A stretch of DNA of 64,000 nucleotides, from the NCBI GenBank assembly GCA_035561515.1, contig DATMXP010000037.1, positions 1-64,000 of the forward strand, read 5' to 3'. Positions 8,654 through 20,835 of the stretch are shown in pieces; the first letter of the stretch is position 1, and every line of letters begins with the position of its first letter. Position numbers and translations under genes: made by a program. This DNA comes from Terriglobales bacterium (GTDB lineage: Bacteria > Acidobacteriota > Terriglobia > Terriglobales > Acidobacteriaceae). The notes beneath the pieces are model-generated. The model saw nothing but the letters and a program-made list of their open reading frames with translations, was not told the DNA's origin and did not search any database.

Positions 8654-10531
8654 ATGGCGTCCACCCCGCGTGAAATCCAAGGCTTTCTCCCTCTTGAGGC
8701 AGAACTGCCGGACCTCCATTTGCTCATCGAACTCCCTCCCTGGCACCGCGTTTTCTTCGGAAACATGGTGGACTTTCTTCACCTTCGCCGGCAGCCTCGT
8801 TACTGGTACCGCTACGCCCCGGCGCAGTTTTGGGACGACGTCTTCGTGGCTCGCGGCATTCCCTGGAGCCGCGTTCGCCAATCTGCTTTTGCGCACATCT
8901 TTGTGATTCTGGCCATTTATGGCCTTACCGATGCGTGGACGAAATGGTACCTGCGGCAGCCCAGAGTCCAACTTCGCACCATCGTGAAGTACGATCTTTC
9001 GGAATACCTTCCGCCGCTTGAGACCGGAAGCGAACCTGCGCCAGCGCCGCGCAAAGGGCAGCCCAAACTCGCCAGGCAACACATCATTTCTTTGCCGCGT
9101 AACCCCGATAACCGCGAGCAGACCATCATTTCCGCGCCTGATGTGAAGCTGCCATCGAACATCCCTCTGCCCAATATCGTCGCGTGGACACCTGTCCCTG
9201 GCGTGCCGACCGCTCTTGCCCATCGTGACGTCTCGCAGATTCGCATGCCCAATCTGCCGAATTCCATCATTGCGCCGCCACCCGAGACCTATTCCCCCGA
9301 CCTTTCAAAATCCGCACTGTCCAGTGTGGGGCCGAAGATCATTCCACCTCCGCCGGACGCTGCCAGCTTCGACTCAACTCACAAGCTGAATGCGCCAACC
9401 GGAATCATCGGTCCGCCTCCATCTGCTGACCTGGCCCGTCTGAACCAGCGTTCCATGAATGCCCCAACGCCGTCCGTTATCGGGCCGCCACCCGACGCGA
9501 ACCTATCTCGTAATCTGGGGACCATGAATATCGGCCACATGACGCCTACCGTCTCCGCACCGAAATTCGAAGTCGCGGAGCAGCGTGCAATTCAACTCGC
9601 TCCCAGTAAAGGGCCCGTTGGCAGGAGCCAACCCACTCGCGGAGGATCTGCTGCCGCAGGCGGCGCTCCACCGATCAATCCCGTCGGCGGAATCAAAAGC
9701 GGGCCCGATGCGGGGCAGTTCATTGCTCTGAACGTCAATCCCGTTGTGCCGAACGGGCCCCTTCGCATTCCGCCCGGACGCCGTTCCGGTGAGTTCGAAG
9801 TCGGCCCCGAAGGCAAACCCGACGCTCCCGGCACGCCCGAGATTAAAGCTGGCGGCACGGGGCCCGGAGGATCTGGAACCGGAAGCTCCGGAGGAGCAGG
9901 GAAGTCCAACAGCCAATTGCCGAGCGGCATTTCCATCGCAAATACTCCCGGTGCTCCGGCCCCGGGATCCGTCGTGGTATCGGCTCCCAATCCCGAAAAG
10001 CGCCCAACCCCCTCTTTCGCGGACGCGGCTCGAGAAGTCTTGAGTGCTTCCGCACGGCCGCCTCGGATCGGGGAAATTCCCCGCGATACCCGCTCAGGCT
10101 CCAGCGCACCGGAGATGCCAAAGATTGAGGGCCGCGTATTCGGGACGAAAAAGGTCTACACCCTCGCTCTCAATATGCCGAACCTCACTTCTTCTGGTGG
10201 AAGCTGGATCATCCGCTTCGCCGAACTGGGCCAGGAACGGAGTGGCGCGGCAATCAGTGCTCCGGTTGCGATGACCAAGGTTGATCCCGCTTATCCGGCT
10301 GAACTTATGCGTGACGGAGTGGAAGGCACTGTCATCCTCTACGCCGTCATTCACAAAGACGGCACAGTAGGCGACGTCCGAGTCATCAAAGGTGTCCAGG
10401 AGAAGCTCAACGAGAGTGCCCGGCTTGCTCTGACCCGTTGGAAATTCCGCCCCGGCACGAAAAACGGCGAAGCCGTCGAGCTCGAAGCTGTTGTCCAGAT
10501 CCCATTCAAAGCTCCCCGCTTTCATTTCTAA
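8654..10531 (+). CDS. large TonB-family energy-transducer-like protein with Pro-rich repeats
   Basis: A 625-residue protein. A cytoplasmic N-terminal segment of about 75 residues precedes one membrane helix (about 77-95, AFAHIFVILAIYGL). A long periplasmic region (about 100-500) is very rich in Pro, Gly, Ser and Asn and contains four spaced copies of an I-I-x-P-P-P-x-x-x-x motif (IIAPPPETYS, IIPPPPDAAS, IIGPPPSADL, VIGPPPDANL). The C-terminal 90 residues form a TonB domain (YPAELMRDGVEGTVILYAVI, then LALTRWKFRPGT). Such proteins couple the inner-membrane proton gradient to outer-membrane receptors. No ExbB/ExbD genes are adjacent. The unusually long N-terminal extension suggests a specialised partner. 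A response-regulator gene follows 79 bp downstream. Confidence 0.88.
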   Translation: MASTPREIQGFLPLEAELPDLHLLIELPPWHRVFFGNMVDFLHLRRQPRYWYRYAPAQFWDDVFVARGIPWSRVRQSAFAHIFVILAIYGLTDAWTKWYLRQPRVQLRTIVKYDLSEYLPPLETGSEPAPAPRKGQPKLARQHIISLPRNPDNREQTIISAPDVKLPSNIPLPNIVAWTPVPGVPTALAHRDVSQIRMPNLPNSIIAPPPETYSPDLSKSALSSVGPKIIPPPPDAASFDSTHKLNAPTGIIGPPPSADLARLNQRSMNAPTPSVIGPPPDANLSRNLGTMNIGHMTPTVSAPKFEVAEQRAIQLAPSKGPVGRSQPTRGGSAAAGGAPPINPVGGIKSGPDAGQFIALNVNPVVPNGPLRIPPGRRSGEFEVGPEGKPDAPGTPEIKAGGTGPGGSGTGSSGGAGKSNSQLPSGISIANTPGAPAPGSVVVSAPNPEKRPTPSFADAAREVLSASARPPRIGEIPRDTRSGSSAPEMPKIEGRVFGTKKVYTLALNMPNLTSSGGSWIIRFAELGQERSGAAISAPVAMTKVDPAYPAELMRDGVEGTVILYAVIHKDGTVGDVRVIKGVQEKLNESARLALTRWKFRPGTKNGEAVELEAVVQIPFKAPRFHF

Positions 10532-10609
10532 GGTTTCATTCTTTGTCCGACTGAGCTGAATTCAGCATCCAATCACTCTGTTGCCCGGAGGTGCGTCATC
10601 ACAGACAAG

Positions 10610-11419
10610 GTGCGAATCCTGTTTGTCGACGACGAGCCCAACATTCGCGCGTCACTGCCGGCAATTCTCCGTCTGCATGGATTCCAGGTCACATCCGCTG
10701 GAACGGTTGGCGAAGCGCTACAGGCCATCGCCTCCGAGAAATTTGACGTGCTTATCTCCGACCTCAACATCGGTAGTCCCGGTGATGGCTTCACCGTCGT
10801 GAGCGCCATGCGTCGCACCCAGCCCAACTGTGTAACGCTCATCCTCACCGGGTATCCTGCGTTTGAAACGGCGCTTCAGGCAATTCGAAGCCAGGTCGAC
10901 GACTACCTCATCAAGCCCGCTGGCGCCGAGAAACTCGTCAAAGCGATCGAAGCTCGTTTAAACCATCGCGCGCCTCATCGGCCGATTGTGCCCAAGCGTG
11001 TCTCTGCCATCCTTCTCGAAAATGCCCAGGCGCTGGTGGATACCATCGTCGACAGGGAACTCCGCATTCTGCATTTGCCCCGTGTTCATTTGAGTGAAGA
11101 AGAATGCCGCCAGAACGCATTGAGTTTCGTCGAGGCGCTGGCACTCCAGCTCGAGAATGGCAGGACCGAACTGCTCCCCGATCTCGTGGAATTGAGCGCT
11201 GCTCACGGGCAGGCGCGCTTCAGGCAGGGATACTCGGCGCCTCTTCTGGTGGAAGAGCATCGCCTCTTCTGCAATGCGGTACTCGAGTGTGTTCAGAACA
11301 ACCTGCTGGCCGTGGATGTCAGCAGCCTGGTGCCCGATCTCAAGCACCTGTCAGATATTCTCGCTTCCATGCTGCGAGAAGCAGTAGCGTCGTTTACCCT
11401 CGTCTCCGACGCTGCGTAA
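10610..11419 (+). CDS. response regulator with C-terminal helical (RsbRD_N-like) domain
   Basis: A 269-residue protein starting at GTG 10610, where the receiver begins immediately as VRILFVDDEPN. The receiver (1-120) has the acidic pair, phosphoacceptor Asp in VLISDLNIG, Thr in LILTGYP and Lys in YLIKPAG, so it should be phosphorylatable. The C-terminal part (about 130-265) is all-helical, with ECRQNALSFVEALALQLENG and a second helical half. This resembles the RsbRD_N / globin-like domain of stress-sensor proteins (inference). It has no DNA-binding domain, so it probably works by protein contact. It follows the TonB-family gene and may be co-transcribed with it. Confidence 0.8.
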   Translation: MRILFVDDEPNIRASLPAILRLHGFQVTSAGTVGEALQAIASEKFDVLISDLNIGSPGDGFTVVSAMRRTQPNCVTLILTGYPAFETALQAIRSQVDDYLIKPAGAEKLVKAIEARLNHRAPHRPIVPKRVSAILLENAQALVDTIVDRELRILHLPRVHLSEEECRQNALSFVEALALQLENGRTELLPDLVELSAAHGQARFRQGYSAPLLVEEHRLFCNAVLECVQNNLLAVDVSSLVPDLKHLSDILASMLREAVASFTLVSDAA

Positions 11420-11441
11420 GAACGCGAAGGGAAGCCGCCCG

Positions 11442-12377
11442 CTAGACCTCTTGCTCCACCAACACCGGTGCTCTGAGGTTAGTAAAGTCGCGCTCCTTCG
11501 GCGCCCCTTCCATAGCCATCAGCACGAAGCGCTTTGCCGCCCGAGACAAGCTCCGTCCTTCTCGATAGACCAGTCCCAGTTCGCGGTAAATCGGTGCCGC
11601 ATCTGTCCGCAGGATCTTGATCTTCCCCTCTTTTACTTCTTCCTGCACGAAGCTCTCGCAGATCATTGATATGCCCAGTCCGGCGCTCACGAACTTCTTC
11701 ACCATTTCCGCGCTGGTCAACTCCATCGTCACCTTCAACTGTGGACGGAACGGGCGCAACTGCTTCTCCATGATTCTCCGCAGCGAGCCCATCTTATGCA
11801 GGATCAGGTCCTGTTGTGCGACTTCCGATGTCGTCCATGCCTTCCGCTTGGCGATCTCACTGCTCGAAGCTGCGATCCAGACCAGCGGATCCCGGTAAAT
11901 TGGAGTCACGATCAGCGTGCTCGAACGAACTGGCATCGTTACCACACCCAACTCGAGTTCGTTGTCCTCCACCTTTTGCAGCACTTTGTGGCTGAAATTG
12001 CGATATACGCTGATTCGCACCTCGGGAAACTGCGTGTGATACCGCGAAAGCAGGCCCGGCAATACATGCAGGAAAGTCGTCTCGTTTGCCCCGATCGAAA
12101 GCACTCCACGTACATCTGACCCCGAATCCGCCACCACTTGCAGCGATTCCTGCCGCAAGGCAATCATCTGCTTGGCGTAATCCAGAAAAAGTTCCCCCGC
12201 CGGCGTCAACGTGACCAGTTTCTTTGTGCGGTCAAACAGCTTGGCGCCGTTTTCCTCCTCGAGCTTTCGTATCTGCGCGCTGATGGCCGGCTGCGAACGC
12301 AGAACTTTTTCCGCCGCCCGCGAAAAATTCCCCAATTCCGCCACTGCAATGAAGCTTATGAGTTGGTCGAAGTCCAT
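11442..12377 (-). CDS. LysR-family transcriptional regulator
   Basis: A 311-residue LysR-type regulator. The winged HTH is at residues 1-60 (FDQLISFIAVAELGNFSRAA, then SQPAISAQIRKLEEE). A linker helix and a two-lobed periplasmic-binding-like effector domain follow (from about 90, VLSIGANETTFLHVLP). Full family length. The target is unknown. LysR regulators often control a divergent neighbour, which here would be nrdJ, although 600 bp and a separate nrdJ promoter lie between. The effector cannot be predicted from the sequence. Confidence 0.93.
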   Translation of the reverse strand: MDFDQLISFIAVAELGNFSRAAEKVLRSQPAISAQIRKLEEENGAKLFDRTKKLVTLTPAGELFLDYAKQMIALRQESLQVVADSGSDVRGVLSIGANETTFLHVLPGLLSRYHTQFPEVRISVYRNFSHKVLQKVEDNELELGVVTMPVRSSTLIVTPIYRDPLVWIAASSSEIAKRKAWTTSEVAQQDLILHKMGSLRRIMEKQLRPFRPQLKVTMELTSAEMVKKFVSAGLGISMICESFVQEEVKEGKIKILRTDAAPIYRELGLVYREGRSLSRAAKRFVLMAMEGAPKERDFTNLRAPVLVEQEV

Positions 12378-20321: not shown

Positions 20322-20835
20322 GCTGGTATGTCCTTTTGACGTGGACCATTAAAAAGTGTCACGAGTCGCCGACCTCGTGAGAGATGTCAAGGGGGTCACG
20401 ACGCCAATTTCCCCGCATAGTCTTGAAAACACTCGCAAAATAAATTTCAAAACCGTGGCATGATGCCCCCACCCAAATTGCTATCCTGAAAATGTAGGTG
20501 GTGAAGACGCATTTTGCCGACGACCAACAACTAATGACTAACAACTTGCTTCTTCTAACTCCTTTGTTTTCATATATGCGTCGTGTAACCCCTTTGCTTT
20601 CATATACAGATTGGCCATATATGAAAACAAAGGACTTATAAATCCTTTAGAATCATATATGTAGAGCCCGACGCTCGCGTAACCGCTTTGTTTTCTTATA
20701 CGAAGGCAAAACAGGGGGGGAGGGGGTCACCTCTGTTGGTATGGACCGGTGTAACCCGACACCTGCTTTCTCATAATCTCCGGGTGTCCTGGTGAGGCAA
20801 GCTTTTTGCTAACCGCTATTCCTGGCACCTATCCT
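20322..20835. other. AT-rich intergenic region with an 18-bp repeat cluster
   Basis: A 514-bp gap between two leftward genes. The middle (20561-20701) holds five copies of an 18-bp motif. After it come a G-run (AGGGGGGGAGGGGG) and a small hairpin GGTGT-AACCCG-ACACC near 20748-20763. Frames here are short and overlap the repeats, so no gene is supported. Confidence 0.6.
20561..20701. repeat. five copies of an 18-bp motif, two of them a perfect inverted pair
   Basis: Copies: CCTTTGTTTTCATATATG at 20561-20578; CCTTTGCTTTCATATAC at 20591-20607; the exact reverse complement of copy 1 (CATATATGAAAACAAAGG) at 20616-20633; CCTTTAGAATCATATATG at 20644-20661; CGCTTTGTTTTCTTATAC at 20684-20701. Copies 1, 2 and 5 follow AAC or AACC. 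Copies 1 and 3 make an 18-bp inverted repeat around copy 2. This looks like an operator cluster or part of a dispersed element. Confidence 0.8.

What the first reader, a model, noticed from the sequence alone, without database searches (positions are those of the whole stretch)
20561..20701. Five-copy 18-bp repeat cluster with a perfect inverted pair in an otherwise gene-free gap
CCTTTGTTTTCATATATG appears exactly in direct and inverted orientation (20561, 20616) with three variants. Copies 1, 2 and 5 follow AAC or AACC. It lies upstream of a membrane-protein gene. It could be a multi-site operator, a transcript-end element, or part of a dispersed Acidobacteriota intergenic family of unknown function.
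Basis: seen in the sequence. Interest (0 to 1): 0.65.

Follow-up and report, generated by a model that had tools for sequence, protein, structure and literature searches.

The report
Modular intergenic repeat family of Acidobacteriota
The five short repeats are the tail of a 340-base non-coding element that is scattered at about 50 places in this Acidobacteriota genome and, in diverged form but with the same layout, through related genera; it looks like an undescribed, promoter-bearing mobile DNA element rather than a switch for the neighbouring gene.

Summary
It is the 3' module of a composite intergenic element (window 20385-20726): a left module with a promoter-like block, a variable centre, then the units, then a terminal G-run. 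The genome holds about 57 such loci; many sit at contig ends. A diverged form with the same order (TGTCAA, promoter, hairpin, 2-5 units TAA(C/G)..CTTTGTTTT(C/G), G-run) occurs in many genera of the class Terriglobia. Unit heads are conserved. Tails are specific to each element but shared among its units. Unit spacings are fixed at about 30, 41 or 52 bp. In other genera sense sigma-70 promoters (10 or more of 12 matches) precede the arrays in 12 of 36 elements (shuffles 0.3, antisense 1). Orientation ignores neighbouring genes but runs against GC skew (30/40, p=0.002) in this genome; elsewhere 12/19, not significant. The orthologous gap is empty in 29 other genera, and one species of another genus has an insertion carrying a 2-unit module where its sisters have 20-40 bp. 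Best reading: a non-autonomous mobile, modular repeat (like BOX or REP mosaics) whose phased units bind a trans-acting protein. The protein and the mobilising enzyme are unknown.

The parts
20385..20509 (+). Left module: TGTCAAGGGGGTC end, A-rich stretch, then a promoter-like block (TTGCTATCCTGAAAATGTAG; -10-like TATCCT at 20482-20487)
   Evidence: About 36-40 loci in the genome carry it; aligned with 10 other sequences from 8 other genomes, TGTCAA is invariant and TGnTANNNT-type -10 positions are conserved; the strict sigma-70 scan does not call it in this genome
20510..20555 (+). Variable centre (short here, 46 bp); other copies carry hairpins, GTCATTCTGAGGCG repeats and GACTAACGAC micro-repeats here
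   Evidence: Comparison of copies
20561..20578 (+). Unit 1
20591..20608 (+). Unit 2 (30 bp after unit 1)
20616..20633 (-). Unit 3, inverted; exact complement of unit 1
   Evidence: DNA hairpin -17.1 kcal/mol, z -5.95
20644..20661 (+). Unit 4 (CCTTTAGAATCATATATG); forms a second palindrome with unit 3
20685..20702 (+). Unit 5 (41 bp after unit 4)
20714..20726 (+). G-run GGGGGGGAGGGGG: right end of the element; similarity between copies stops about here
   Evidence: present at the same place in other genera

Best explanation
The feature is one copy of an undescribed family of non-autonomous, modular, mobile intergenic DNA elements of Terriglobia. Shown: a fixed order of modules (left promoter-like module, variable centre, array of 2-5 CTTTGTTTTC units at set spacings, terminal G-run), high copy number, spread through unrelated intergenic sites, presence/absence at one orthologous site in another genus, and orientation set against replication (GC skew) rather than against genes in this genome. 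Inferred: a conserved trans-acting protein (a transposase-like or nucleoid-type protein) binds the units on one face of the helix. It recognises the conserved head, and its specificity for the tail drifts by lineage, which would explain why units within an element share a tail. The element's own promoter transcribes the centre and the array towards the G-run. The element spreads in trans through a single-stranded (lagging-strand) route, as Y1/HUH elements do; the enzyme itself has not been identified.
For: Copy number and dispersal: (about 57 loci; many at contig ends). Same architecture in other genera: 119 of 397 genomes in the order hit, against 20 with control hits; 31 of 80 loci listed are Acidobacteriota, the rest scattered singletons. 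Fixed spacings of 29-30, 40-41 and 51-54 bp in 38 elements; periodicity R=0.82 at 10.25 bp, p=5e-5 against uniform. Tails agree within an element 0.60 against 0.38 between genomes, permutation p=5e-5 over 17 genomes, while heads agree 0.75 and 0.72. Sense promoters in 12 of 36 at 10 or more of 12 matches, against 1 antisense and 0.3 in shuffles. Orientation against 20-kb GC skew in 30 of 40, regression intercept -0.040 (se 0.010) with coding bias fitted; gene orientation 17 of 40. Presence/absence: a 684-bp stretch with a 2-unit and G-run module between xerC and the next gene in G360, against 20-40 bp in several sister species. No element at the orthologous cca gap in 29 genera.
Against: No target-site duplication or terminal inverted repeat was seen. 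No transposase gene is flanked by unit arrays: of 7 Y1_Tnp genes, 3 lie near a left module but none near a complete unit array. The skew bias is not significant in three other genomes (12 of 19). In G360 the stretch is longer than the module, so the exact inserted unit is uncertain. An architecture conserved across orders is more than most selfish repeats show. The spacing classes are few and partly inherited, so helical phasing is suggestive only. The window copy has no consensus sigma-70 promoter.
Confidence: 0.52

Rival explanations
1. A multi-copy non-coding RNA gene: the left promoter makes a short RNA that ends at the following hairpin, or runs on through the units to the G-run, and the RNA is the functional product.
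For: Sense promoters upstream of arrays in other genera, often followed by a terminator-like hairpin (sequences); conserved -10 region; folding z -4.2.
Against: The central hairpins differ from copy to copy, some being REP-like inserts. Pairing columns in 14 copies show only one pair with changes on both sides. No Rfam match. Fixed spacing of direct units is not expected of a folded RNA. Some elements (G360) show no promoter.
Confidence: 0.17
2. A chromosomal nucleoprotein or replication-linked site (fork barrier, nucleoid or segregation site): phased units load a protein, and direction relative to the fork matters.
For: Orientation against GC skew but not genes; spacings near whole helical turns; terminal G-run on a fixed strand.
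Against: Absent from the orthologous gaps tested. Copy number varies from a few to dozens between genera. The skew bias is weak elsewhere.
Confidence: 0.17
3. A multi-site operator or terminator for the adjacent membrane-protein or cca gene.
For: Clustered, partly palindromic sites in the gap between two genes on the - strand.
Against: The same cluster is at about 57 loci beside unrelated genes in both orientations and is absent beside cca in 29 genera.
Confidence: 0.03

Closest known systems
BOX elements of Streptococcus pneumoniae (PMC3049150)
   Same: Composite small interspersed repeats: end modules with a variable number of internal modules, intergenic, foldable, thought to be spread in trans.
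   Different: BOX ends are related to an IS by their inverted repeats. Here no inverted ends were found, the end modules are a promoter-like block and a G-run, unit spacing is fixed, and the layout holds across genera and orders.
REP/BIME sequences with RAYT (Y1_Tnp) transposases (PMC2817692, PMC3733652, PMC6006769)
   Same: Intergenic, dispersed, palindromic parts, mosaic arrangement; some copies here carry GTAG-hairpin or REP-like inserts in the centre.
   Different: The units are not GTAG-hairpins. No RAYT is flanked by unit arrays. The element is about 300-550 bp with a promoter and a G-run end.
TIR-flanked tyrosine transposases (TIRYT) of Acidobacteria, e.g. Koribacter versatilis (PMC3733652)
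   Same: Same phylum; some of their TIRs form a repeat family in the genome.
   Different: The reported motif GGGGWSAS does not match the G-run GGGGGAGGGGG, and no unit array flanks the Y1 genes here.
Acido-1 and Acido-Lenti-1 RNA motifs (Rfam RF01686, RF01687; PMC2864571)
   Same: Non-coding elements reported from Acidobacteria.
   Different: No Rfam match inside the element in any copy tested; the one Acido-Lenti-1 hit, in Terriglobus roseus, lies outside it.

Membership tests
REP/BIME (GTAG-tagged) | 20-40 bp hairpin with GTAG/GTGG foot as the repeated unit | tested here: not met
   The units are direct or inverted CTTTGTTTTC words without a GTAG foot; only a central hairpin in other copies has GTAG at its foot.
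REP/BIME (GTAG-tagged) | Copies flank a RAYT (Y1_Tnp) gene | tested here: inconclusive
   3 of 7 Y1_Tnp genes have a left module within about 1.2 kb; none has a complete unit array. The gene at C16:21380 is flanked by a hairpin repeat also found in element centres.
MITE | Terminal inverted repeats | tested here: not met
   Ends are TGTCAAG... and ...GGGGGAGGGGG in the copies read.
MITE | Target-site duplication | tested here: inconclusive
   None seen by eye in copies with both ends; the G360 empty-site comparison is at about 80% identity and its ends are not resolved.
BOX-type composite repeat | Two end modules with a variable number of internal modules | tested here: met
   3-, 4- and 5-unit forms and variable centres between constant ends in the same genome.
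BOX-type composite repeat | Sequence relation to the BOX family or its IS partner | not tested
   No comparison with BOX sequences was run.
Known RNA family (Rfam) | Score above the gathering threshold | tested here: not met
Gene-specific operator | Found beside the same gene in relatives | tested here: not met
   29 orthologous cca gaps lack a unit array with its G-run.

The most novel reading that the evidence does not exclude
A class-wide family of transcribed, replication-oriented elements in Acidobacteriota in which a conserved protein reads helically phased CTTTGTTTTC sites next to a terminal G-run: either a new trans-mobilised element class moved by an unknown enzyme, or a host-maintained chromosome site that uses transcription against the fork.
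Probability: 0.25. Interest if true: 0.8.

Novelty: new variant of a known kind. Interest (0 to 1): 0.55.

Why it matters
It gives a testable handle on what fills the intergenic space of a very abundant soil phylum. The element breaks assemblies (many contig ends of this genome lie in it). It carries promoters, hairpins and a G-run into gene neighbourhoods. Its conserved head with a drifting tail predicts a lineage-specific binding protein that could be pulled down. No report of it was found in the open-access papers searched, but that library is incomplete.

Tried and rejected
Operator or terminator for the neighbouring genes. Known RNA family. Viral origin: the 27 viral contigs that match a loose pattern contain no 2-unit array. 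RNA covariation: too few changes among copies to judge. Anti-Shine-Dalgarno role of CUCCUUU: rejected by eye, because that part is not conserved between lineages. Stop codons in several frames: rejected by eye, because T of TAA is often C. Leftward promoter from CTTGACA (complement of TGTCAAG): no -10 match seen by eye. IS1595 transposases beside units in G196 and G296: in G196 it is an insertion into unit 2 with an 8-bp duplication TATCTAAG, so it is not the element's own enzyme.

Full report
OBSERVATION. They lie in a 514-bp gap between a CCA-adding/poly(A) polymerase gene and a membrane-like gene, both on the - strand. Both strands fold better than shuffles, and as DNA units 1 and 3 form a strong hairpin.

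WHAT IT BELONGS TO. A search of the window's own genome (G000, 5.41 Mb, 60 contigs) found the 18-mer exactly 26 times, and 93 times with up to 3 mismatches; the same pattern read backwards gave 1. Searching with the whole gap gave 73 matches in about 40 places. A sequence model of the right part, built from 14 copies, added a more diverged subfamily, for about 57 loci in all; some are halves of one copy split by the assembly. Reading the copies side by side shows a constant order: a left module starting TGTCAAGGGGGTC and ending at a promoter-like block; a variable centre; an array of units; and the run GGGGGGAGGGGG, after which similarity stops. In the window these are 20385-20509, 20510-20555, 20556-20702 and 20714-20726. 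Unit patterns in this genome fall into a few types, e.g. ++-++ with centre distances 30, 31, 22 and 41, and +++ with 53-54 and 29.

DISTRIBUTION. In 120 genomes of the same family the right-module model matched only this genome and one other genus (G020), whose copies have the same layout but diverged sequence (sequences). A looser unit pattern hit 119 of 397 genomes of the order, against 20 with the reversed control. Loci from these genomes and from a scan of 84,980 species genomes (31 of 80 listed loci are Acidobacteriota, including Terriglobus roseus, Granulicella, Candidatus Acidiferrum and gp2 genomes; the others are scattered singletons) show the same architecture. One Blastocatellia hit appears to be in coding sequence and is probably chance.

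ANATOMY ACROSS GENERA. In 38 elements with at least two recognisable units before a G-run, start-to-start spacings fall at 29-30 (15), 40-41 (18), 51-54 (5) and 70-71 (2), with two odd values; two of the 38 (L222, L244) are from other phyla and are probably chance. Collapsed to distinct genome-spacing pairs, the periodicity is R=0.82 at 10.25 bp (p=5e-5 against uniform), but the peak is broad and the classes are partly inherited. The first 15 bases of the unit agree equally within and between elements (0.75, 0.72); the next 10 agree 0.60 within an element and 0.38 between genomes (permutation p=5e-5, 17 genomes). A good sigma-70 promoter pointing into the array lies upstream in 12 of 36 elements, against 0.3 in shuffles and 1 antisense. 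An alignment of left modules keeps TGTCAA invariant and a TGnTANNNT-like -10. In two genera a left module alone stands just upstream of a gene (L353 and L359), so it is probably a working promoter type. In the window genome itself a strict consensus scan does not call a promoter; there it rests on homology.

CONTEXT. Neighbouring genes show no clear orientation preference (left 18:18, right 18:12). The element's strand has negative 20-kb GC skew in 30 of 40 cases (p=0.002), and a regression that includes coding bias keeps the effect (intercept -0.040, se 0.010), while coding bias itself shows none (17 of 40). In three other genomes the direction is the same but not significant (12 of 19). If the leading strand is G-rich, as usual, the element's unit strand runs against the fork. 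Positional conservation is absent: the gap 3' of cca in 29 other genera has no unit array with a G-run. In genus g9, G360 has 684 bp carrying a 2-unit and G-run module between xerC and the next gene, where several sister species have 20-40 bp. This is presence/absence at one site; gain is the simpler reading.

MOBILISING ENZYME. Unknown. The genome has seven Y1_Tnp genes; three lie near left modules, none near a complete unit array. One (C16:21380) is flanked on both sides by a hairpin repeat that also sits in the centre of many elements, so the centre collects REP-like inserts.

CONCLUSION. Shown: family, architecture, spacing, tail coherence, sense promoters in other genera, orientation bias in this genome, and presence/absence at one site. 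Inferred: a binding protein, mobility in trans, and a lagging-strand route. Closest in kind to BOX elements (PMC3049150) and REP mosaics (PMC2817692, PMC3733652), without meeting the defining features of REP or MITE. Rated a new variant of a known kind.

Noticed in passing
L107 (G000:C16) 1173-1215 and 1854-1893: A Y1_Tnp gene (1294-1833) is flanked on both sides by TGTGGCGCGGACACTCCTGTCCGCGGCC; a near-identical hairpin sits in the centre of many elements, which looks like a REP/RAYT pair.
   Followed up: partly
L440 (G196:C4) 10050-11880: An IS1595-like transposase gene (10102-11091) interrupts unit 2 of an element, with similar inverted ends and an 8-bp duplication TATCTAAG; a similar gene start follows a unit in L191 (G296).
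   Followed up: partly
L353 (G009) and L359 (G036), just 3' of cca: The left module alone (TGTCAAGCCCC...GCTATCCTGA or GCTATTCTAA) stands just upstream of another gene, as a likely native promoter.
   Followed up: no
own genome, contig ends of C4, C8, C10, C14, C16, C17, C18, C21, C22, C23, C24, C35, C38, C39, C41, C43, C45, C47, C50, C53: Many contig ends of the assembly fall inside this element, so its copy number is uncertain and probably underestimated.
   Followed up: partly
element centres, e.g. L063, L068, L084: GTCATTCTGAGGCGAAGCCGAAGAACCTCTGTACTT repeats, one to three copies, in the centre of many elements.
   Followed up: no
window 20727-20760; L115, L182, L209, L218: A further shared stretch (GGTA(C/T)GGACCGGT...) often lies just beyond the G-run, also in other genera.
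   Followed up: no
L081 (G000:C8 1-404): A copy in which the array turns back into an inverted centre and left module, i.e. a head-to-head composite at a contig start (possibly an assembly artefact).
   Followed up: no
L252 680-724 (-), Terriglobus roseus: Acido-Lenti-1 RNA (RF01687) match, outside the element.
   Followed up: no
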